Of a stretch of DNA of 64,000 nt, positions 1-9,444 are shown in pieces (position 1 is the stretch's first letter; each line of letters opens with the position of its first letter). The stretch covers positions 1-64,000 of the forward strand of contig NZ_RDSD01000009.1 in assembly GCF_003712195.1 (NCBI RefSeq). Direction: 5' to 3'. The stretch is from Proteiniphilum sp. X52 (lineage in GTDB: Bacteria; Bacteroidota; Bacteroidia; Bacteroidales; Dysgonomonadaceae). The position numbers and the translations under genes were made by a program. The notes beneath the pieces were generated by a model. That model was given only the letters and a program-made list of their open reading frames with translations, had not been told where the DNA came from and did not search any database.

Positions 1-110
1 CCGCCGCCAATCAGACAGGTTTCTTTCTTGTCATAGCAACCCGGTTTTGCAAGAAACAAGCGCCCATATATCGATAAAACACCGGTTACTCCGTCAATCG
101 CGCGACTCAA
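1..110 (-). pseudogene. Truncated GG-leader protein, first array copy (runs off window)
   Basis: This is the first copy, cut by the window edge, of the remnant seen again 1105 bp further on. On the minus strand an ATG at position 34 opens a reading frame MTRKK and then P, V and a stop. The start is that of the intact leader at 4227, but the leader core is deleted and the frame shifted. The GGG-containing frame instead stays open from a TTG at 110 to the window start. It follows the lipoprotein gene at 107-757. Decay is inferred from comparison with the intact gene at 3079-4227; the missing part cannot be seen. Confidence 0.6.
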
Positions 111-757
111 TCGATTTCCGGAAACCAGTTCGAGGGAATGAGCTTCTTGTCATTGGCAATATGGTCGCGTATGACGGTGTCTATCACATACGGGTCGAAC
201 TGCACGACGTTGCTCAAGTTCGGGTTATATGAAATATCTATGTATTGGATATTCCCATGACTAAAATTGATATACGTGATATCATTGTGCGAAACAATGA
301 TCTTTCGCAAGGAGAACCCGATGTCTATCCCGGTCAGCCGGTTGTGGGACAAATCGATCTCCCTGATTGTGGCTTTGTCGTATAATTTTCTTCTTTCCCT
401 TTCGGGCAACTGCCATTGAGGATCGATTCTAAATTCGAAAATCTTGTGGAATGAATTGTACGACAGATTGAGCGTTACGATTTCTCTCGGCAGGTAATCC
501 ACAATCACGGTGTCCAACCGGTTATTGGACAAGTCCAATGACTTAATGGTAAAGTCCGAAAGGTCTGGGAAATCGGAAATGGAGTCGTACGACAAATCGA
601 AGTAATCGATCACCGAATCACACGGCAACTGCATCAGCCGCTCCAACTTGCTTTGTTTCTCCGCTGCAACGGTATGCTCCCCCGTCTGTTTTTGGGAAGT
701 GCCGCCCGTGCAGGAAAAGAGCGGCAGGAGCATTAAGAAAATGTATATCCTGTTCAT
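107..757 (-). CDS. LRR-like lipoprotein (copy A)
   Basis: A 216-residue predicted lipoprotein. The N-terminus is a short signal peptide ending in a lipobox (LFSC, Cys about residue 16), so it should be lipid-anchored in a membrane, probably the outer membrane. The body carries about five irregular leucine-rich repeats of roughly 20 residues with cores such as LDLSNN, LNLSYN, IDLSHN and IDISYN, a fold used for protein binding. No catalytic motif is visible. It starts 14 nt after the stop of the truncated GG-leader protein, as its paralogues do, which suggests translational coupling and a functional pair. It is almost identical to 1212-1862. A role as partner or immunity protein for the exported neighbour is inference only. 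Confidence 0.85.
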   Translation of the reverse strand: MNRIYIFLMLLPLFSCTGGTSQKQTGEHTVAAEKQSKLERLMQLPCDSVIDYFDLSYDSISDFPDLSDFTIKSLDLSNNRLDTVIVDYLPREIVTLNLSYNSFHKIFEFRIDPQWQLPERERRKLYDKATIREIDLSHNRLTGIDIGFSLRKIIVSHNDITYINFSHGNIQYIDISYNPNLSNVVQFDPYVIDTVIRDHIANDKKLIPSNWFPEID

Positions 758-771
758 AACCTATAAATTTT

Positions 772-1139
772 TCAGTTTTGATGATCCCGGCGGTACTCCT
801 CCAACGCGGCATCGATTATGCCATGATTGTACCTTCTCATATAGTCGTGAAGCCGGTCGTTCCTTGTCTCCGTGGGAGAGTCAACCCAGGTTCCCGTCTG
901 ATCCTGCGTGAAGAAAATCGAAACAAACTCATCGCTGTAACCTTTATTTTTTAGATATTCGACAGCCTTTTCTCTTTTATTATTCGCGTAACGCATCGCG
1001 TCCTGATACCTGCCCCATCCATCAACGTAACCTCCGTCCCACGTTCCGTCGGCAACCATCTGGTCATACTCCTCTACCGTGTATGGGTCTTTCCGGGTCC
1101 CGTTGCCGCCGCCAATCAGACAGGTTTCTTTCTTGTCAT
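772..1139 (-). pseudogene. GG-leader peptidase-like protein, leader and catalytic domain deleted
   Basis: The open frame (from a TTG at 1215) contains LIGGGNG, then PYTVEEYDQMVADGTW and GGYVDGWG as in the intact protein at 3079-4227. It then jumps straight to RYQDAMRYAN and the conserved C-terminal tail ending ALEEYRRD. The Gly-rich linker and the HExxH domain are therefore missing. The ancestral ATG (1139) still reads MTRKK but hits a stop after two more codons. The leader core has been lost, apparently between two short GAAAC repeats, and the frame is shifted. I call it a pseudogene. A short protein from the TTG cannot be excluded, but it would lack a proper leader start. Confidence 0.7.
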
Positions 1140-1211
1140 AGCAACCCGGTTTTGCAAGAAACAAGCGCCCATATATCGATAAAACACCGGTTACTCCGTC
1201 AATCGTGCGAC

Positions 1212-1862
1212 TCAATCGATTTCCGGGAACCAGTTCGAGGGAATGAGCTTCTTGTCATTGGCAATATGGTCGCGTATGACGGTGTCTATCACATACGGGT
1301 CGAACTGCACGACGTTGCTCAAGTTCGGGTTATATGAAATATCTATGTATTGGATATTTCCATGACTAAAATTGATATACGTGATATCATTGTGCGAAAC
1401 AATGATCTTTCGCAAGGAGAACCCGATGTCTATCCCGGTCAGCCGGTTGTGGGACAAATCGATCTCCCTGATTGTGGCTTTGTCGTATAATTTTCTTCTT
1501 TCCCTTTCGGTCAACTGCCATTGGGGATCAATATCAAATTCGAAAATCTTGTGGAATGAATTGTACGACAGATTGAGCGTTACGATTTCTCTCGGCAGGT
1601 AATCCACAATCACGGTGTCCAACCGGTTATTGGACAAGTCCAATGATTTAATGGCATAGTCCGAAAGGTCTGGGAAATCGGAAATGGAGTCGTACGACAA
1701 ATCGAAGTAATCGATCACCGAATCACGCGGCAACTGCATCAGCCGCTCCAACTTGCTTTGTTTCTCCGCTGCAACGGTATGCTCCCCCGTCTGTTTTTGG
1801 GAAGTGCCGCCCGTGCAGGAAAAGAGCGGCAGGAGCATTAAGCAAATGTATATCCTGTTCAT
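1212..1862 (-). CDS. LRR-like lipoprotein (copy B)
   Basis: A 216-residue lipoprotein, nearly identical to the one at 107-757. The visible differences are few, for example IYIC for IYIF near the N-terminus, R for C in LMQLPRDS, and EFDIDPQ for EFRIDPQ. The lipobox LFSC is intact, and the LxLSxN repeats fill residues of about 65-190. It begins 14 nt after the stop of the chimeric tail gene (1877-2414), and its stop overlaps the TTG frame of the next remnant. Both duplicate copies keep an open frame while the neighbouring peptidase-like genes have decayed. That suggests selection on the lipoprotein, or a very recent duplication. Confidence 0.85.
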   Translation of the reverse strand: MNRIYICLMLLPLFSCTGGTSQKQTGEHTVAAEKQSKLERLMQLPRDSVIDYFDLSYDSISDFPDLSDYAIKSLDLSNNRLDTVIVDYLPREIVTLNLSYNSFHKIFEFDIDPQWQLTERERRKLYDKATIREIDLSHNRLTGIDIGFSLRKIIVSHNDITYINFSHGNIQYIDISYNPNLSNVVQFDPYVIDTVIRDHIANDKKLIPSNWFPEID

Positions 1863-1876
1863 AACCTATAAATTTT

Positions 1877-2414
1877 TCAGTTTTGATGATCACGGCGGTA
1901 CTCCTCCAACGCGGCATCGATTATGCCATGATTGTACCTTCTCATATAGTCGTGAAGCCGGTCGTTCCTTGTCTCCGTGGGAGAGTCAACCCAAGTTCCC
2001 GTCTGATCCTGCGTGAAGAAAATCGAGACAAACTCATCGCTGTAACCACCTTCTTTCAAAAAGTGAGTCCACTTTAAAACGTTTTCTTTCAAAATCCTGT
2101 TCATTTTTTCTCTCCACACATCCCAATTCAGTCGTGTTTCAAACTCCTGACGCAACGCAGTCCTCAATTTCATGTAACGCTCTTTGTCGCCGAATACCGA
2201 TCGTATCTTCTCCAACCTTTCGCCGATGCGGCGGGAGGCATTGAAAAGCCGTTCTTTCCCTCTCGTACCGGATGACTTACGCCACCGACGTAGGCGGCGA
2301 TACTCGGTACGCCATAGGCTGATGTTTTCCCTTGCAGGAAATCAAGACCAAAAAAATTAGTAAAACAAAAGCCCTAATTATATTCGTAATTCTATTAATT
2401 CCAGTTGTTTTCAT
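1877..2414 (-). pseudogene. Broken lipoprotein start joined to a GG-peptidase tail
   Basis: On the minus strand an ATG at 2414 opens a 45-residue frame with a clear lipoprotein signal (hydrophobic core, then LVLISC) that stops at 2277. A second frame overlaps it, open from about 2341 to 1877. It reads a basic helical stretch (ENISLWRTEYRRLRR onward) and then the same tail as the truncated copies, GGYSDEFVSIFF to ALEEYRRDHQN. A frameshift between the two would give one lipoprotein ending in the peptidase-type tail. The simplest reading is a broken gene. An alternative is a short protein from the TTG at 2215 (112 residues). The tail is identical to that of 772-1139 because it lies in the duplicated unit. 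Confidence 0.5.
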
Positions 2415-2424
2415 GATGATGTTT

Positions 2425-3066
2425 TCAATTTACCGAATCACTTATGATAATATAATCTACATGTTCAGGACCAATACTGCCAATATATATTAATTTTCTA
2501 TTATTGGCTATATTGTTATGAATTACCGTATCTATTTTGTAAGGATCAAAGCCTACCACATTACTCAGATTCGGATTATAAGAGACATCTACATACTCTA
2601 TGTTTTTATGGCTAAAAGATATGGATGTCAGCTCATTGTGTGACGCATTAATTTTTCGGATAGGTACACCTATGCTAACGGATGAGATCCGATTGTGAGA
2701 AGCATCTATCTCTTTTAAGTTATTGGACGGTGGTTTTATTTCAAGAATATAAAAGTTCCTGAGCAGGTTGTTTGATAGATTTAGCTTTTCGATACCTTTT
2801 GGTAAGAAATCCACGATAAATGTATCTATTTCATTATGTGACAAATCCAATGATTTAATGGTATAGACCGAAAGATCGGGGAACTCCCGGATACTATCGT
2901 TCGACAAATCGTAAAAATCAATTACCGTGTCAACGGGAAAGGTTAGAAGAAGTTCCAACTTGCCCGGTTCTTTCCCCGATTCCGTTTGTTGCTCGCTGAT
3001 TTTCCTGTTTTCCCTGCAGGAAATCAAAACAGCGATAGAAATTAATACAAAATATGTTTTTTTCAT
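2425..3066 (-). CDS. LRR-like lipoprotein paired with the intact peptidase
   Basis: A 213-residue lipoprotein: signal peptide MKKTYFVLISIAVLISC with the lipobox Cys at about residue 17, then a polar linker and five or six LRR-like repeats (LDLSHN, LNLSNN, IDASHN, INASHN, VDVSYN). It is a diverged paralogue of the copies at 107-757 and 1212-1862, sharing the order of repeats and the motif NPNLSNVVxFDPYxIDTVI. It starts 12 nt after the stop of the intact GG-leader metallopeptidase and is presumably co-translated. The pairing of this lipoprotein type with the peptidase tail in every copy argues that the two act together. Whether it binds, anchors or neutralises the peptidase is not shown by sequence. 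Confidence 0.85.
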   Translation of the reverse strand: MKKTYFVLISIAVLISCRENRKISEQQTESGKEPGKLELLLTFPVDTVIDFYDLSNDSIREFPDLSVYTIKSLDLSHNEIDTFIVDFLPKGIEKLNLSNNLLRNFYILEIKPPSNNLKEIDASHNRISSVSIGVPIRKINASHNELTSISFSHKNIEYVDVSYNPNLSNVVGFDPYKIDTVIHNNIANNRKLIYIGSIGPEHVDYIIISDSVN

Positions 3067-3078
3067 GAGTCAATCCAT

Positions 3079-4227
3079 TTAATATCCATAATAATCTCTT
3101 CTGTATTCTTCCAACGCGGCGTCTATTATTGGACGATTATATTTTTCCATATACTCGTGCATGTTGCTAACAATAGCATCGGCAATTTCATGCTCCCAAA
3201 TACCTTTCTCATTCTTTTCAAAGAAAATATCAACAAATTCTTCACTGTATCCTTGGGATATCAAATCTGCCGCTGCGATATGGGGCCAACCATTGGCATT
3301 TCTTAATGCCTCCTGATATCTTGCATAGTGGTTTGCATGTTGCGCCTCGTGTGCGAGTGTTATCAGCAACTTTTCCTCCATATTGCGCGCCTTTGAAAAA
3401 TCATAGCCCATATTGTCGAGACCATTGTGGGGATTGTTCCATCCGGCACTGTCGATAAAAATTGCATTAAAGTCGATATGATATGATTCGGGTGAGGGAT
3501 AAGATGTCAAGGCCAGTGTTACTGCATTGCCCTGTGCCTGGAGATTCCTCACGCCAAAAGTCATGTGCACGATGCCCTTGTCGAAATAAGCGAGTAAGTT
3601 TTTTATCACGGAGTTGGTTTCCAGGATTCTTGTCAGTTGCGAGTTAAAGGCGCTGTGTCCTGTGGTGTTAAGGGTGAAATGGTTTGAGTTGGAGATATCC
3701 ACCCCGTCTTTAAGGGGATCGATCCCGCCGCCATACCATCCTCCTCCGCCTCCTCCGCCTCCTCCGCCTCCTCCGCCGTAGCCCGGAGGCATTTGTCCAA
3801 ATATGTCTCCGCTCACTCCATACCCCCACCAATAACCGGAGTCTCCTGACGAACCGGAATCCCCTCCGGTAAAGTCATTCCAAAATCCCGAATCAATTCC
3901 TCCCCATTCGTTGGTATTGCCATCACCGGAGGAACTTCCAAAATTATCATTCGATCCGTTGTTCTCATTTCCGGAATCACTGCCTCCGCATGAACCTCCA
4001 CAACTTCCCGTGACAACCACATCTTTGAATGTGTATCCCCATCCGTCAACATAACCGCCATTCCATGTTCCGTCGGCAACCATCTGGTCAAACTCCGCAA
4101 CGGTATAAGGATTGGAAGCACTTCCGTCTCCTCCCCCGATAAAACCATGCTGAACAGTTTCACTCAGCACCGGCATTCTTTCTGCCAATTCGTTCAAACT
4201 CAATTTTGTCAGTTTCTTTCTTGTCAT
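3079..4227 (-). CDS. GG-leader protein with Gly-rich linker and HExxH metallopeptidase domain
   Basis: A 382-residue protein with three parts. Residues 1-33 form a leader (MTRKKLTKLSLNELAERM, ending in GGG at 31-33) of the type on Bacteroidales natural-product precursors, cleaved after the double Gly by peptidase-containing ABC exporters. Residues 34-70 carry PYTVAEFDQMV and GGYVDGWGY. Residues 75-165 are a low-complexity Gly/Ser/Asn/Asp linker with a run of 13 Gly at 151-163. Residues 175-382 hold HEAQH at 293-297, the HExxH zinc signature with E294 as general base. An acidic pair at 345/347 (WEHE) may provide the third ligand. I infer an exported zinc peptidase, perhaps a toxin or effector, rather than a small peptide product. 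No exporter gene is in the window. It sits in a minus-strand operon with two glycosyltransferases, a LanC-like protein and an LRR lipoprotein. Confidence 0.75.
   Translation of the reverse strand: MTRKKLTKLSLNELAERMPVLSETVQHGFIGGGDGSASNPYTVAEFDQMVADGTWNGGYVDGWGYTFKDVVVTGSCGGSCGGSDSGNENNGSNDNFGSSSGDGNTNEWGGIDSGFWNDFTGGDSGSSGDSGYWWGYGVSGDIFGQMPPGYGGGGGGGGGGGGGWYGGGIDPLKDGVDISNSNHFTLNTTGHSAFNSQLTRILETNSVIKNLLAYFDKGIVHMTFGVRNLQAQGNAVTLALTSYPSPESYHIDFNAIFIDSAGWNNPHNGLDNMGYDFSKARNMEEKLLITLAHEAQHANHYARYQEALRNANGWPHIAAADLISQGYSEEFVDIFFEKNEKGIWEHEIADAIVSNMHEYMEKYNRPIIDAALEEYRRDYYGY
3741..3777 (-). repeat. CTCCTCCGC-type 9-bp microsatellite coding for poly-Gly
   Basis: About four tandem copies of a 9-bp unit (CTCCTCCGC on the plus strand) encode the Gly run at residues 151-163 of the metallopeptidase. 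As the unit is a multiple of three, slippage would change linker length without breaking the frame. Confidence 0.85.
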
Positions 4228-4260
4228 AACAATTAAATTAAAAAAATAAATAGTTATAGA

Positions 4261-5127
4261 TCAGACTAACAAGAGTCTGTTTTTATTTGAATAAAACACT
4301 TTTTGAAACAGATCCGACACTCCTCTGACAGGAATCATTCCTTTTTCCCGAAGTTTTTCCACTGCTTCAAACATAGACATCAATTCAGGAAGGTCTTTTT
4401 TGTTTTTTTCAATCAGGTACAACAAAACCTCACGCACTATTTTTTCCGAAGTTTTCACCTGTTCTTCCCCTTTTCGGTTCGTTATTTGGTTTTCTGAAAT
4501 CCGACAATAGAGCAACGGTTGGGATTCCACATAAAACGTTCCGCCCTTCTTGGCGATTTCCGTCCACAGTTTGTAGTCTTCGGCATAAGCATAGTTTTCA
4601 TAGCTCAACTGATTTTCCTTCAAAAAGTCTTTTCGTATCATCGCAGTAGGATGACACATAAAATTCCCTTTTAGAAATTGTAACAGCGGATACTCTACCA
4701 ATCCGCTTATATTTCCGGATATCCCCCGTGGAAGTGCGCCTTTTCCAGTATGCTGCATCCATGTGCCGCAGACCGTGATGCCCGGTTCGGCTTCCATTAA
4801 GGCAAACTGAATTTTCAGTCTGTCAGGGTGCATGATGTCATCGGCATCCATACAGGCTATGTATCTGCCTCGCGCCGCATCCATCCCAAGGTTGAGCGAT
4901 GCTGTAAAATCGTGCTTATTCTCCAATAAAACCATTCGCTTATCATCGTAGGCGCGAATAATGTCGCGTGTGCCATCCGTAGAACCATCATCCACTACAA
5001 TGCACTCAAAATCGGGGAATGATTGGCAATTCACACTGTCTATTGCTTCCCTGATATACATTTCCGCATTGTAAGCCGGCATTACGATGGAGATAGCAGG
5101 TGTTTGTTTATCTTTATCTGTTGTCAT
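4261..5127 (-). CDS. Family 2 glycosyltransferase
   Basis: A 288-residue GT-A fold glycosyltransferase. The N-terminus reads ISIVMPAYNAE, followed by the nucleotide-binding VVDDGSTDGT at about 40-50 and the DxD-type MDADD at about 93-97, which binds metal and the sugar nucleotide. The rest fits a soluble cytoplasmic enzyme with no membrane segment. It lies between the GT4-type gene (13 nt gap) and the GG-leader metallopeptidase (33 nt gap) in one minus-strand operon, so a role in glycosylating the exported protein is plausible. Acceptor and donor cannot be read from sequence. Confidence 0.9.
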   Translation of the reverse strand: MTTDKDKQTPAISIVMPAYNAEMYIREAIDSVNCQSFPDFECIVVDDGSTDGTRDIIRAYDDKRMVLLENKHDFTASLNLGMDAARGRYIACMDADDIMHPDRLKIQFALMEAEPGITVCGTWMQHTGKGALPRGISGNISGLVEYPLLQFLKGNFMCHPTAMIRKDFLKENQLSYENYAYAEDYKLWTEIAKKGGTFYVESQPLLYCRISENQITNRKGEEQVKTSEKIVREVLLYLIEKNKKDLPELMSMFEAVEKLREKGMIPVRGVSDLFQKVFYSNKNRLLLV

Positions 5128-5140
5128 TTTCTCATTTATA

Positions 5141-6397
5141 TTATTGGCTCAACTCTCTGTACACTTCCAGGGTTCTGTTTATCATCAGTTCGAGATTTAA
5201 CTTCTGCTCATACAGTTGCCGTGCATTTTCACTCAGCATTTTTCTCAATTTCTCACTGTTTATTAAACGGATCAGTTGGGCAGCCATCATTTCTACATCT
5301 ACAGAAAGTCCAAAAACGGGAGAGAATCTGGTTTTTACTTTTAAGGCATTCACTCCATCGGTGAAAATTTCGTCCAAACCATCCACCGCCGTTGTTATAA
5401 TCGGCATACCGAACATGGCCATTTCTATTGCCACATAGCTTGCCTGCTCTTGCAGTGAGGCAATTATTCCTATATCACACGCTGAATACAGTTCTTTTAA
5501 TTCGTCAAAAGGAATCCGCCCTTTTACATCAACTTCCAAATCTGGAAAATCCTGCTTCAGTTGATTTCGAAATTGCGGATTGCAGGTTCCCGCAATTGTC
5601 AGCGAAACATTGTAGCCTTGTTGCCGTACCAGACGTAAGGCCTTAAGAATATACACAACCCCTTTACTCTCGCTTACTACGCCCACATAGAGACAGTGAA
5701 ATTTATCATTTTTTGTTTTCTTTCCTTGATTTTCTATGTGTAAAGCTAAATCATTTATACCGTTGGGTATCACTCGGATATTGTGGGAATAGCGGTGTAT
5801 GCATTTTTTTAGGAAGTCCACGGCACAGTTGGTTACGCACAGCAACGCATCGGGTGCGGCGTAAGATTGCAGTTCACAATTGTTGGTTGCATAAATCCCG
5901 GGGTTGGGCTTTTTGGCATTCTCCGCATTGCCGTAAGTTAATTGATAGAGTTTGTTGAAACGCTTCTTATCGCTGTTGTACAGTCCTTTCCAAGGGATAC
6001 AATGCAAGTGAGTGATTATTTTACAGTTGATTTGTTCCCGAATATATACCGCCAAATCTATTAAGTTAAGCGTATGCAGGTGGATGATGCGTTTTTCTTT
6101 TCCATCAAAAAGATGTTTGGTAAGTCTATAGACCTGTCTATTGTATTTTCGTATCCAGAAGCGTTCGGCTATGATGGTGTTATACTGCTGCGGCATCGGG
6201 ATGCTGAATTTCACGTAATGGTCAATCGTTTCTTCTTTCGGGAAAAGTAGCGTGTCATCATTTCGCAGGTGTATCCAATGCACTTGTATGTCCGCAACAT
6301 CCTGAAGTCCGCTGATCAGCGTGCTTACGTACCTGTCCACGCCGGAAGTGTTGGTGGCGTGGGACATGTCGATGAGATAGAGGTTGATGAGAGACAT
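5141..6397 (-). CDS. Family 4-type glycosyltransferase of a GG-peptide cluster
   Basis: A 418-residue GT-B fold enzyme. The N-terminal half opens with INLYLIDMSHATNTSGVDRY, as in glycosyltransferases I recall from Bacteroidales natural-product clusters (the TIGR04157-like group, recalled, not searched). The C-terminal half has the family 4 features: RVIPNGIN at about 210, CLYVGVVSESKG at about 235, and the donor-site acidic region SLQEQASYVAIEMAMFGMPI around 310-330. It is 4 nt from the LanC-like gene and 13 nt from the GT2 gene. It probably modifies the exported GG-leader product or another surface protein. The family is clear; substrates are unknown. Confidence 0.85.
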   Translation of the reverse strand: MSLINLYLIDMSHATNTSGVDRYVSTLISGLQDVADIQVHWIHLRNDDTLLFPKEETIDHYVKFSIPMPQQYNTIIAERFWIRKYNRQVYRLTKHLFDGKEKRIIHLHTLNLIDLAVYIREQINCKIITHLHCIPWKGLYNSDKKRFNKLYQLTYGNAENAKKPNPGIYATNNCELQSYAAPDALLCVTNCAVDFLKKCIHRYSHNIRVIPNGINDLALHIENQGKKTKNDKFHCLYVGVVSESKGVVYILKALRLVRQQGYNVSLTIAGTCNPQFRNQLKQDFPDLEVDVKGRIPFDELKELYSACDIGIIASLQEQASYVAIEMAMFGMPIITTAVDGLDEIFTDGVNALKVKTRFSPVFGLSVDVEMMAAQLIRLINSEKLRKMLSENARQLYEQKLNLELMINRTLEVYRELSQ

Positions 6398-6401
6398 GAT
6401 C

Positions 6402-7352
6402 TTAAAATAAAACAGTTTTCTTGTGTGTCAAATAAATCAACAGCCTGCTCACTCCTTGTTCATACCCGGCTTTAAAAACTCCGGGCGGCATAAGCTTTAA
6501 AATCGTTTTCTCTATTTCGTTTTCTTCTCCCATCAAAAGCAAGCTTAAATGCTTGTCATTTCCCAATAATTGAGATAGTTCAATGCGGTCTTTTAAACTT
6601 GCATTTTTCACATCATCTAAAGCCGAAAATCGTTTGTTATCATTGATTATATCGTTGTATTTTCCTGTTTTGTCTAATTTTTCCAAATAATACGCAACCC
6701 TGCGGGAACTCTTCACTCGCCCGCTTCTATACAAATCGGCATAATCATCTAAAACCACCCGCGAATAATTTACATATCCGCACTCGTAAACTACTTTTAG
6801 ATATTTCTCAAACTTTAATAAAACCGTAGTTTTGCTGTTGATGTAATGTATATCTTTGAAATCAAGAAACTGAATGGCCAAATAGAGTTCATTTGCCTCG
6901 AAAATGCTTTTCATTGCTTCATCTATCCGTTTATCGACAGGATTATGATATGATTCTACGGCAGCCAAAAAATAATTTAGCCGTATCGAATCCAGCAAGG
7001 TCTTAGGGTTTTCCTTTGCTTTTTCAAATCCGGACAGTATTTTTTCGTATTTCTCACCAAACAACTCATCAAAATCGGCATCGATGAAGTCGTTTTTTAT
7101 CAGATAAATCAACACATGGCCAATTCCGCTGAGCCCGTTTTCAAAGCCAATATCATCCGTTTTGCTTATCAGTGCTTCCTGCAACAGATCAAAAGCTTGG
7201 TCTTCTATATATTCGTCTTGCAGGTAGCGTGCAACTTCGAATAACGCCCAGGCAATTCCCGCCTTCCCGTTGTAAAGTCCGGAAGAGTTGATGGAGCAGG
7301 CATTGAGGAGGAGGTAGTCAACCAGTTTTCGTATGGTTACAACGTTGATCAT
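6402..7352 (-). CDS. LanC-like protein without an evident zinc site
   Basis: A 316-residue alpha-helical protein whose first third matches the LanC-like (lanthionine cyclase/GCL) toroid repeats: GLYNGKAGIAWALFE at about 25-40 and GFENGLSGIGHVLIYL at about 77-92. True LanC cyclases bind zinc with two Cys and a His. Here only isolated Cys residues occur (such as VYECGY), with no CH pair, so cyclase activity is doubtful. The end (GVFKAGYEQGVSRLLIYL) resembles a last degenerate repeat. It is the first gene of the operon, 4 nt upstream of the GT4-type gene. It may act as a scaffold for the leader protein or the glycosyltransferases. Confidence 0.7.
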   Translation of the reverse strand: MINVVTIRKLVDYLLLNACSINSSGLYNGKAGIAWALFEVARYLQDEYIEDQAFDLLQEALISKTDDIGFENGLSGIGHVLIYLIKNDFIDADFDELFGEKYEKILSGFEKAKENPKTLLDSIRLNYFLAAVESYHNPVDKRIDEAMKSIFEANELYLAIQFLDFKDIHYINSKTTVLLKFEKYLKVVYECGYVNYSRVVLDDYADLYRSGRVKSSRRVAYYLEKLDKTGKYNDIINDNKRFSALDDVKNASLKDRIELSQLLGNDKHLSLLLMGEENEIEKTILKLMPPGVFKAGYEQGVSRLLIYLTHKKTVLF

Positions 7353-7509
7353 TTTTTAACACCCGTATTTCTTGCAATTCCACATTTTCTTTGAAATCAT
7401 GCAACACCATGGTTCTTGGCGTAAAATAACTGTTCTCGGTATCTCTGATAGATTAAGAACAAAATATAGATGACATTTAGTCTCGAGAATACCCGGTTTA
7501 TTCCGGTTA

Positions 7510-7539
7510 CAAAGTTATAAAATAGTATAAATCGGCAAA
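7510..7539 (-). promoter_or_regulatory. Possible Bacteroidales promoter for the LanC-GT-peptidase operon
   Basis: On the minus strand a TTTG at 7536-7539 and TAACTTTG at 7510-7517 fit the Bacteroidales -33/-7 elements, but with an 18-nt spacer, slightly short. Transcription would start near 7503, leaving a leader of about 150 nt before the LanC-like gene. It is the only such match I found in this gap. Confidence 0.4.
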
Positions 7540-7597
7540 TTATTTCGATAGTTTTTTGTTATAAAAATACCCATGATACAGCATGTCGTTTGAGCAA

Positions 7598-7655
7598 GAG
7601 TAACCTCTGAAAAGGTATACCCCCATCCTTCTACATAAACACCGTTCCATGATAC
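7598..7655 (-). pseudogene. Remnant of another GG-leader precursor
   Basis: Read on the minus strand this stretch gives SWNGVYVEGWGYTFSEV, matching GTWNGGYVDGWGYTFKDV of the intact protein at 3079-4227 (residues 53-70). No leader or start lies upstream and no peptidase domain downstream. It is the only recognisable coding trace in the 322-bp gap between the export island and the rhamnosidase genes. It shows the family once extended further. Confidence 0.65.
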
Positions 7656-7674
7656 TAATAAGCGGAACTCTTTA

Positions 7675-9444
7675 TTATCTTATAATCTTTATCTGTTTCG
7701 GAGCATCAATCTCACTTTTTATTTTTCCGTCGGCTTGTTTCACATGTTTTACTGTCACGACACCGTAAGGTGTGGGAAATGATCCTTCCGCAAAAGCGAG
7801 AACACCCAGGTTCGGACGTATGCGGATTACCTTTGATCCGGGTTCGATCACCTGGATCCCCAACACATGGGCCGTCAACCAGGCGGTTGGTCCGGATGCC
7901 CATCCGTGACAGAGGCTGGCCCTGAGGCCGATATAGCAATGATCACCCCCGTCGGCATGAATATCGAACTTCGCCGGGTCAGGAAGTTGATCGATCGGTA
8001 AGGCATTCAATCGTTCTTCATAATTGAAATTCTCCCAGAAGGTGGTGGCGCCCAAATCGAGCATTGCTCCCCAATAATCGGAGATAATGTCCATTGCTTC
8101 CTGGTATTTGCCGTCTTTCGCCAATGCCTCCAGCATGTAATAGCCATAGAAGGTCGCGAAATCATTTGCCCCGTTTCTGAGTATAACCGGAGAAGCTTGA
8201 TTGGGAGGCAACATCCCTGCCAATGCGAGCAATGAGGCTGCCTGTTTATTGCCATGATGGGGTGGAAGGTGCTTATGTAGTGATGCAGCTGCTTTTATAC
8301 ATGCATTCTTGAGTTCCCTGTCGTTCAACCATCCGGCAATATCCTTTCCTGCTTCCATAGCCATCAGCGTCAAAGAGTGGAGTCCGGCATGGATCACGTT
8401 GGAATCTCTGGCCGTGGGCCAATCGAGAAAACGCCCTTCATCGAGATTTTCCCTGCCATCCGGCCCTATATTTGAAATGACCTGACGGATCAAAGACGAG
8501 AGATAGTCCTGCTGTTCTTTCAGATAATCCCAATCCCCATGATACAGGTAAAGATCGCGATGGGCAATTAGCCACCACAATGAATAGGAGGAGATCCCGT
8601 TCATCCATCGGGGTAGGGGGGTGGTGTCCCTTCCGAAATCGAGACTCTTTTTCACCACTTCGTGATCCCCGAACACGGCGTGTATGGTCATGATTTCCGG
8701 ATGGATGTCCCCCAACCATACCAGCCGGTCTCTTTTTATTCCGTCCCACAGGTACTCCTGCATATTCAGGTGAACGGTATAGGCTCCCGTTTCCCATATT
8801 TCGTTCAGTCGTTCGTTATCGCATTTGAATGAACCCAGGTAAGGGATATTCCTGTACCGGAAAATCGCTCTTACCGATCGTAGCGGCAGTTCCACACCTT
8901 TATCCAACAGATCTATCCGTACGAACCGGAATCCGGAATTGCCCACCTCTACGGTTCCCAACCAGGGGAGTTCGAGTGTGTAATCTCTTAAAGAATGATC
9001 ATTGGTGGCTGAACCCATGCCCGGCACACTGTTGTCAATACAATCGCTCATGGCTTCCGAAACCGACTCTCCCAAACGGATACGTACTCGCACCGGCTTT
9101 TTCTCGCCTCTTATCGCGGCGGCAATTTCTATTCCGCCGTAGAGTTCTTTTCCGAAATCGAGTAACACCGAGGCCTGTGCTTCGTCGTCCGACCGGAGGA
9201 GACACATGCCTGTTCCGCTGGTTGAGAGTTGTCCGTCGAATGGTGCCAACAGCACTTCGGCGTTCTTCACCTGTTGGTTTTTATCATCCGATTGCCAGAC
9301 TATTTTCACAGGGGTAAGATATGCCCTTGTAATTTCGTCTTTGATCAGTTGTCCCTGGAAGGTTTTTTCTGCCAAGTATTTTTGGGCCGGAACGTTTTCC
9401 GCTAAAAGAAAAAGAAAAAGAATAAAGAATAAACGAGTTTTCAT
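7675..9444 (-). CDS. Alpha-L-rhamnosidase-type glycoside hydrolase (GH78-like)
   Basis: A 589-residue exported protein. The signal peptide ends near residue 21 (LLAENVPAQ). A beta-rich part follows, then an (alpha/alpha)6 barrel typical of GH78-like enzymes: GSFKCDNERLNEIWETGAY starts it, then EYLWDGIKRDRLVWLGD, a signature with the acidic residues of the active-site region. A small C-terminal beta domain (RIRPNLGVLAFAEGSFPTP) ends it. It should release L-rhamnose from plant or bacterial polysaccharides in the periplasm or at the surface. At 589 residues it is shorter than classic GH78 and lacks extra N-terminal modules. It is the last gene of the minus-strand rhamnose block, 136 bp after the second rhamnosidase. 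Confidence 0.85.
   Translation of the reverse strand: MKTRLFFILFLFLLAENVPAQKYLAEKTFQGQLIKDEITRAYLTPVKIVWQSDDKNQQVKNAEVLLAPFDGQLSTSGTGMCLLRSDDEAQASVLLDFGKELYGGIEIAAAIRGEKKPVRVRIRLGESVSEAMSDCIDNSVPGMGSATNDHSLRDYTLELPWLGTVEVGNSGFRFVRIDLLDKGVELPLRSVRAIFRYRNIPYLGSFKCDNERLNEIWETGAYTVHLNMQEYLWDGIKRDRLVWLGDIHPEIMTIHAVFGDHEVVKKSLDFGRDTTPLPRWMNGISSYSLWWLIAHRDLYLYHGDWDYLKEQQDYLSSLIRQVISNIGPDGRENLDEGRFLDWPTARDSNVIHAGLHSLTLMAMEAGKDIAGWLNDRELKNACIKAAASLHKHLPPHHGNKQAASLLALAGMLPPNQASPVILRNGANDFATFYGYYMLEALAKDGKYQEAMDIISDYWGAMLDLGATTFWENFNYEERLNALPIDQLPDPAKFDIHADGGDHCYIGLRASLCHGWASGPTAWLTAHVLGIQVIEPGSKVIRIRPNLGVLAFAEGSFPTPYGVVTVKHVKQADGKIKSEIDAPKQIKIIR

What the first reader, a model, noticed from the sequence alone, without database searches (positions are those of the whole stretch)
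1..7352. Candidate undescribed system: GG-leader metallopeptidase with a dedicated LRR lipoprotein, LanC-like protein and two glycosyltransferases
Seen: an intact ORF joins a GG-type leader (residues 1-33) to a Gly-rich linker and an HEAQH domain, and is followed 12 nt later by an LRR-like lipoprotein. The same tail/lipoprotein pairing recurs twice. Known: GG leaders of this type normally precede small peptides handled by modifying enzymes and a peptidase-containing ABC exporter. Inference: a protein-sized effector uses a peptide-export route, may be glycosylated by the two glycosyltransferases, and is bound or neutralised by the lipoprotein.
Basis: partly seen in the sequence, partly recalled or inferred. 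Interest (0 to 1): 0.75.

Follow-up and report, generated by a model that had tools for sequence, protein, structure and literature searches.

The report
Glycine-leader bacterial toxins with immunity lipoproteins
A bacterium of the Bacteroides order appears to carry a modular protein weapon that leaves the cell by a route normally used for small peptides, beside a row of lipoprotein genes that look like its antidotes, most of whose matching weapon genes have decayed.

Summary
Window 3079-4227(-) belongs to a family of Bacteroidales proteins that share a double-glycine leader, usually a short module (NPYTxxEFDxMxxxGxWxGGYVxGWGY), and differ in the C-terminal domain. Of 22 GG effectors scanned, 4 pass Pfam cut-offs for toxin-type enzymes (Tox-MPTase2 twice, YkuD, C39-like). 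The next gene looks secreted in 35 of 38 cases, background 120 of 253. Its family follows the C-terminal family: 29 of 35 similar-warhead pairs have similar partners, shuffled mean 3.6. The window's HEAQH domain is followed by an LRR-protein gene in 6 of 6 genomes where the domain was found; in three of these only decayed toxin copies were seen. The window holds one intact pair plus two LRR lipoproteins behind truncated toxins; a fourth sits on contig C33, which overlaps position 1 by 77 identical bases. Three full-length C39 exporter genes are in the genome, one 4.7 kb from a sister effector. Best reading: a polymorphic toxin system using a peptide-type (PCAT, type I) exporter and a LanC-like/glycosyltransferase kit, with an orphan-immunity array. 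Toxicity, glycosylation, zinc binding and export are inferred; the HEAQH fold was not confirmed.

The parts
3079..4227 (-). GG-leader effector, 382 aa: leader (1-33), shared module (34-67), Gly/Ser linker (68-168), HEAQH warhead (169-382)
4129..4227 (-). double-glycine leader of the effector
   Evidence: aligned with 13 other effector N-termini; TIGR04149 11.3 bits, below its cut-off of 25
4027..4128 (-). shared module DGSASNPYTVAEFDQMVADGTWNGGYVDGWGYTF
3082..3723 (-). C-terminal HEAQH domain, predicted metallopeptidase warhead
   Evidence: conservation; fold not confirmed
3337..3351 (-). HEAQH motif codons
2425..3066 (-). LRR lipoprotein, predicted cognate immunity, type A
2277..2414 (-). truncated lipoprotein start (46 codons including the stop)
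1877..2215 (-). remnant: GT4 C-terminal fragment fused to toxin tail
1212..1862 (-). LRR lipoprotein, orphan immunity, type B
772..1139 (-). remnant toxin: frame-broken leader, module, tail; the HEAQH region is missing
107..757 (-). LRR lipoprotein, orphan immunity, type B
1..77 (.). 77-base exact overlap with the end of contig C33, which carries a fourth LRR gene
4261..5127 (-). GT2 glycosyltransferase
5141..6397 (-). GT4 glycosyltransferase, TIGR04157-like (below cut-off)
6402..7352 (-). LanC-like protein without the zinc triad

Best explanation
The locus is a polymorphic toxin and immunity system that uses a peptide-type exporter. The effector is made with a double-glycine leader. The LanC-like protein and glycosyltransferases modify it, most likely on the Gly/Ser/Tyr-rich linker (inferred). 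A C39-peptidase ABC exporter (PCAT) with HlyD and a TolC-type channel removes the leader after GG and secretes the toxin (inferred; an exporter of the type found beside related effectors is on contig C18). The C-terminal domain, here an HEAQH putative protease, attacks a target in the envelope of related bacteria (inferred), and the LRR lipoprotein held in the producer's envelope binds that domain and blocks it (inferred). The tandem copies with truncated toxins but full-length lipoproteins are an orphan-immunity array against sister toxin variants (inferred). Shown by sequence: the shared leader and module with changing C-termini, the matched secreted-looking partner, the conserved warhead-LRR pair, the exporter genes, and decayed toxins beside full-length LRR genes.
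For: Four further ORFs in the same genome share the leader but not this C-terminus (C23, C55, C18, C13). The leader/module profile hits 14 of 101 genomes of the own family, 25 of 349 of family f59 and 6 of 393 drawn across the order (in the last two only the best 15-17 candidates per genome were scored). Of 22 GG effectors scanned with Pfam, 4 pass a cut-off: Tox-MPTase2 (own C55 25.7/25; L047 29.2/25), YkuD (L076 28.9/23.4), Peptidase_C39_2 (L059 24.5/24); CHAP is just below (L044 25.8/26). Of 10 f59 proteins scanned, 1 passes, a GG-less one: NlpC/P60 (L114 30.5/23). Downstream ORF secreted-looking in 35 of 38, background 120 of 253. Warhead-partner concordance 29 of 35, shuffled mean 3.57, maximum 12 in 2000. 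HEAQH domain followed by an LRR gene in 6 of 6 genomes. Tail type tracks LRR type inside the array: the two A tails agree in 17 of the last 18 residues, their LRRs are 93% alike; the two B tails are identical over 55, their LRRs 97% alike; between types 48% (tails) and 51-52% (LRRs). PCAT or HlyD in 15, a glycosyltransferase in 16, a LanC-like gene or piece in 13 of 32 neighbourhoods; at least one of these in 25 of 32 (counted by hand).
Confidence: 0.78

Rival explanations
1. A modified-peptide (RiPP) cluster: the long C-terminus is a core peptide that the LanC-like protein and glycosyltransferases turn into a natural product.
For: GG leader, TIGR04157-like GT4 and a LanC-like gene sit together. 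Some Bacteroidales clusters have been annotated as RiPP clusters with 'long core' precursors and LanC-like proteins without zinc motifs (PMC10352776, passages seen).
Against: Some C-termini are recognised enzyme domains, they vary between groups, and partners co-vary with them. Two checks found no radical SAM gene in 32 neighbourhoods, and the window's LanC-like protein lacks the zinc triad.
Confidence: 0.1
2. The HEAQH protein is a processing protease for other GG peptides or a nutrient protease, and the LRR lipoprotein is its surface adaptor.
For: HExxH motif and a lipoprotein partner.
Against: Decayed toxins beside tandem full-length LRR genes in G000, G887 and G1025, and the same leader on other C-termini with other partners.
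Confidence: 0.07
3. The truncated copies are a silent store of C-terminal cassettes for recombination rather than orphan immunity.
For: The remnants keep tail sequence homologous to the intact gene, which could guide recombination.
Against: They lack the HEAQH region, so they cannot supply that warhead; the full-length part of each unit is the LRR gene.
Confidence: 0.15

Closest known systems
Polymorphic toxin systems (Zhang et al. 2012, PMC3482391; passages seen)
   Same: constant N-terminal trafficking part, variable C-terminal warhead, adjacent immunity gene, polyimmunity loci; Tox-MPTase2 and Imm-LRR are named there
   Different: trafficking here is by GG leader and a C39 exporter; the table row seen gives Tox-MPTase2 with TcdB/TcaC and RHS, and 'type I secretion', 'double-glycine' and 'GG motif' were not found in the held text (300,000 of 357,715 characters); C39 exporters are mentioned there only as relatives of a toxin peptidase
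TIGR04148/04149/04150 rSAM peptide cassettes of Bacteroides (PMC4573289, passages seen)
   Same: GG-type leader; C39-type exporter and HlyD in some clusters
   Different: no radical SAM gene seen here; protein-sized C-termini; dedicated secreted partners
Microcins and bacteroidetocins (PMC10233263, PMC6671954; search listing only)
   Same: GG leader and C39 ABC export, as recalled
   Different: small peptides, not modular enzymes (recalled)
Glycocins such as enterocin F4-9 (PMC8620827; search listing only)
   Same: a glycosylated exported bacteriocin
   Different: here glycosylation is only inferred and the product is protein-sized

Membership tests
Polymorphic toxin system | constant N-terminus with exchangeable C-terminal domains | tested here: met
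   36 effector-partner pairs fall into 13 C-terminal groups by BLAST single linkage behind one leader/module family
Polymorphic toxin system | known toxin-type catalytic domains | tested here: met
   4 of 22 GG effectors over Pfam cut-off: Tox-MPTase2 twice, YkuD, C39_2; the window's own domain matches no family
Polymorphic toxin system | adjacent specific immunity gene | tested here: met
   partner family tracks warhead family, 29 of 35 vs 3.57 shuffled; protection itself not tested
Polymorphic toxin system | toxicity to related bacteria | not testable with these tools
   no experiment
C39 (PCAT) secretion substrate | double-glycine leader | tested here: met
   leader ending in GG, aligned with 13 other effectors
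C39 (PCAT) secretion substrate | C39 exporter in the genome | tested here: met
   six PF03412 matches, three in frames of 732, 736 and 744 aa; the C18 one 4.7 kb downstream of a sister effector
C39 (PCAT) secretion substrate | cleavage and export by that exporter | not testable with these tools
   no experiment
TIGR04149 rSAM-modified RiPP | model score over cut-off | tested here: not met
   11.3 bits vs 25
TIGR04149 rSAM-modified RiPP | neighbouring radical SAM enzyme | tested here: not met
   no BLAST hit to two own-genome proteins taken as rSAM by eye, and no CxxxCxxC in ORFs of 250 aa or more, 32 neighbourhoods; no rSAM profile was run
Zincin metallopeptidase | HExxH motif | tested here: met
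   HEAxH kept in all 4 rows of A5
Zincin metallopeptidase | zincin fold and third ligand | tested here: inconclusive
   pLDDT 67.5, motif falls in helix 115-142 of the model; no credible PDB match
LanC cyclase | C..CH zinc triad | tested here: not met
   no CH dipeptide in the window protein; of five LanC-like proteins looked at, two (L050, L079) do have CH

The most novel reading that the evidence does not exclude
Bacteroidales have a whole class of modular protein toxins that borrow peptide-bacteriocin machinery: GG leader, C39 exporter and a glycosylation kit acting on a shared module and linker. They carry peptidoglycan- and protein-cutting warheads, each with a secreted or lipid-anchored immunity protein, and lose toxins while keeping arrays of immunity genes. 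This would be a trafficking mode missing from the polymorphic-toxin catalogue consulted.
Probability: 0.6. Interest if true: 0.8.

Novelty: new variant of a known kind. Interest (0 to 1): 0.68.

Why it matters
It would link two fields kept apart, peptide bacteriocins and polymorphic protein toxins, and would explain why LanC-like and glycosyltransferase genes without radical SAM partners sit beside GG-leader genes in Bacteroidales. It also gives ready toxin-immunity pairs to test, including an LRR lipoprotein as a predicted envelope immunity protein.

Tried and rejected
Viral contigs (A2, A3, A4: no relatives), plasmids (DNA; HEAQH domain) and phages (HEAQH domain): no match. PADLOC on five window proteins: one chance-level hit. 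Solved structures with the HEAQH profile: two chance-like hits, a designed barrel (E 0.0028) and a carrageenase (E 0.33). Foldseek and VIA listed no zincin and no other credible fold. Lanthipeptide and rSAM-peptide readings set aside because the window's LanC-like protein lacks the zinc triad and two checks saw no rSAM gene. A draw across the class (395 genomes) found the HEAQH domain only in the own genome.

Literature: ten searches of the held open-access library listed no paper whose title or abstract start describes GG-leader polymorphic toxins with glycosyltransferases in Bacteroidales; subscription papers and preprints are not held, so absence from print is not shown. Nearest in passages read: an archaeal C39 island with many GG-leader proteins suggested as toxin or signalling (PMC6393860) and 'long core' precursors in Bacteroidales (PMC10352776). 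PMC4349605 passages concern Prevotella bacteriocin annotations; PMC8939145 passages seen.

Rows dropped or counted oddly: one search covers 32 neighbourhoods, several from one genome (G000 five, G100 three, G016, G375 and G433 two each), and L055 has no intact effector ORF; one search uses the other 31. In one search, 4 of 42 effector ORFs had no downstream ORF; the background of 253 includes the partner genes themselves and the whole 64-kb window. In one search, 2 of the 38 pairs were dropped (a frameshifted first half in L078, a far neighbour in L094) and for L046 the second downstream ORF was used. Six warhead-similar pairs had dissimilar partners, and 34 partner-similar pairs had dissimilar warheads, 32 of them among the roughly 600-aa erythromycin-esterase-like partners. 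The GSY count is inflated because the shared module itself contains GGY.
Full report
What is there. The window is the start of contig C96 (141 kb) of a 4.43-Mb, 96-contig genome. A relative reported as the same genus (G051) has the contig length of the Proteiniphilum acetatigenes DSM 18083 record, so the genome is probably Proteiniphilum or close kin; this is an inference. On the minus strand the order is LanC-like, GT4, GT2, GG effector, LRR lipoprotein, then a truncated lipoprotein start, a GT4-fragment/toxin-tail fusion, an LRR lipoprotein, a toxin remnant with a frame-broken leader, and another LRR lipoprotein. The end of contig C33 overlaps window bases 1-77 exactly and carries a third toxin remnant and a fourth LRR gene. 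An exact overlap of that length is what an assembler can leave at a repeat, so the array probably continues there; long reads would be needed to prove it.

A family with exchangeable ends. In the same genome, four further ORFs share the leader (C23 260 aa, C55 196 aa, C18 166 aa, C13 85 aa) but not the window's C-terminus. A profile of leader plus module (alignment A1, 14 rows) hits 14 of 101 genomes of the own family, 25 of 349 of family f59 and 6 of 393 drawn across the order; only the best 15-17 candidates per genome were scored. Of 22 GG effectors scanned, 4 pass a Pfam cut-off: Tox-MPTase2 in two, YkuD in one and Peptidase_C39_2 in one, with CHAP just below (25.8 against 26); the other 18 pass none. 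Of 10 module proteins from f59 scanned, one GG-less protein passes NlpC/P60. Zhang et al. 2012 list Tox-MPTase2 as a polymorphic toxin domain of Bacteroidetes delivered with TcdB/TcaC and RHS (PMC3482391, passages). YkuD, NlpC/P60 and CHAP enzymes usually act on peptidoglycan (family knowledge), so an envelope target is likely; this is an inference.

Matched partners. Of 42 effector ORFs in the surveyed loci, 38 have a same-strand downstream ORF; 35 of the 38 look secreted by a crude N-terminal rule, against 120 of 253 non-GG ORFs of 120 aa or more in the same loci, a background that includes these partners. Among 36 usable pairs, 35 combinations have similar C-termini and 29 of these also have similar partners; shuffling partners gives a mean of 3.57 and a maximum of 12 in 2000 trials. 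Relatedness inflates this. But sister effectors in one locus differ accordingly: L047 has four, in three C-terminal groups with three partner groups. The reverse is weaker: 34 partner-similar combinations have dissimilar C-termini, 32 of them among the erythromycin-esterase-like partners.

The HEAQH domain and the LRR protein. The domain was found in six genomes: G000; G045 (record JAAYFB010000054, N-terminus cut by the contig end); G040 (a tail fragment); Bacteroides faecichinchillae JCM 17102; G887; and G1025. In all six the next gene is an LRR-protein gene. In G040 only its conserved start is left, recognised by eye. In G887 and G1025 the toxin is a remnant followed by two tandem LRR-type genes that are 25-33% identical to the window's (Pfam was not run on them). 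The domain was not found in the other 394 genomes of the class draw. In the window array, toxin tail type follows LRR type: the intact tail and the C33 tail agree in 17 of the last 18 residues and pair with LRRs 93% alike; the other two tails are identical over 55 residues and pair with LRRs 97% alike; between types the tails are 48% and the LRRs 51-52% alike. Decayed toxins beside full-length LRR genes suggest that immunity is what is kept; the two type B LRR genes differ by 6 non-synonymous and 5 synonymous codons, too few to test selection.

Export and modification. The genome has six C39 matches, three in full-length exporter frames. The C18 exporter (HlyD 4110-5474, PCAT 5508-7694) lies on the same contig as a sister GG effector (340-840) and a LanC-like fragment. 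Counting by hand, 15 of 32 neighbourhoods hold PCAT or HlyD, 13 a LanC-like gene or piece, 16 a glycosyltransferase similar to those used as queries, and 25 at least one of these. Runs of GT4, GT2, effector, partner, GT4, HlyD and PCAT are seen in L071 and L072, and the fused GT4 fragment in the window suggests that such an arrangement once existed here. G/S-G/S/N-Y/W triplets occur at 14.6 per 1000 aa in effectors and 1.4 in other ORFs (partly due to GGY in the module itself), so the linker is a candidate acceptor; that sugars go there is a guess. In f59, of 9 neighbouring ORFs scanned, two are sugar-nucleotide epimerase-type, two core-2 branching enzymes and one a GT2. The window's LanC-like protein has no CH and thus no zinc triad, though two of five LanC-like proteins looked at have a CH; no radical SAM gene was seen by two simple checks. 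A published survey reports LanC-like proteins without these motifs in Bacteroidales clusters (PMC10352776, passages).

What failed. The HEAQH domain matches no Pfam or NCBIfam family. A model from four sequences reached pLDDT 67.5 and pTM 0.67, with the motif inside a long helix (115-142), but neither Foldseek nor VIA listed a zincin or any credible match. Metallopeptidase activity therefore rests on the conserved HEAxH and on analogy with sister effectors. The LRR model could not be run.

Verdict. The finding is real. It is best described as a polymorphic toxin and immunity system with a peptide-type exporter and a glycosylation kit, including an orphan-immunity array. I call it a new variant of a known kind: architecture, warheads and partner logic are those of polymorphic toxins, while the export leader and associated enzymes are those of bacteriocin peptides. 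Ten searches of the held library showed no description of this combination (listed in Tried and rejected), which does not prove that there is none.

Noticed in passing
L108, L109, L110, L114, L115 (family f59): Proteins with the same NPYT...GGYVxGxGY module, mostly with a Gly/Ser-rich linker, but an N-terminus without a GG leader; their export route is unclear. L115 has a sugar-epimerase gene and L109 a methyltransferase gene nearby.
   Followed up: partly
L098 1044-2927, L050, L051, L052, L077, L078, L079: Small effectors are repeatedly followed by a 574-627-aa secreted-looking erythromycin-esterase-like protein (PF05139, E 9e-16 for the C18 copy; grouped by BLAST); it may be their immunity protein or a second effector.
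   Followed up: partly
L042 4628-5389: A chimeric ORF joins the start of an LRR lipoprotein to the second half of a LanC-like protein, a sign of recombination in these arrays.
   Followed up: no
G000 contig C32 (L040): Apparently a separate peptide system: two proteins that look like radical SAM enzymes by eye, a small GG-type peptide and a C39 exporter.
   Followed up: no
window 2277-2414: A 46-codon truncated lipoprotein start between the type A LRR gene and the first remnant, another decayed gene in the array.
   Followed up: partly
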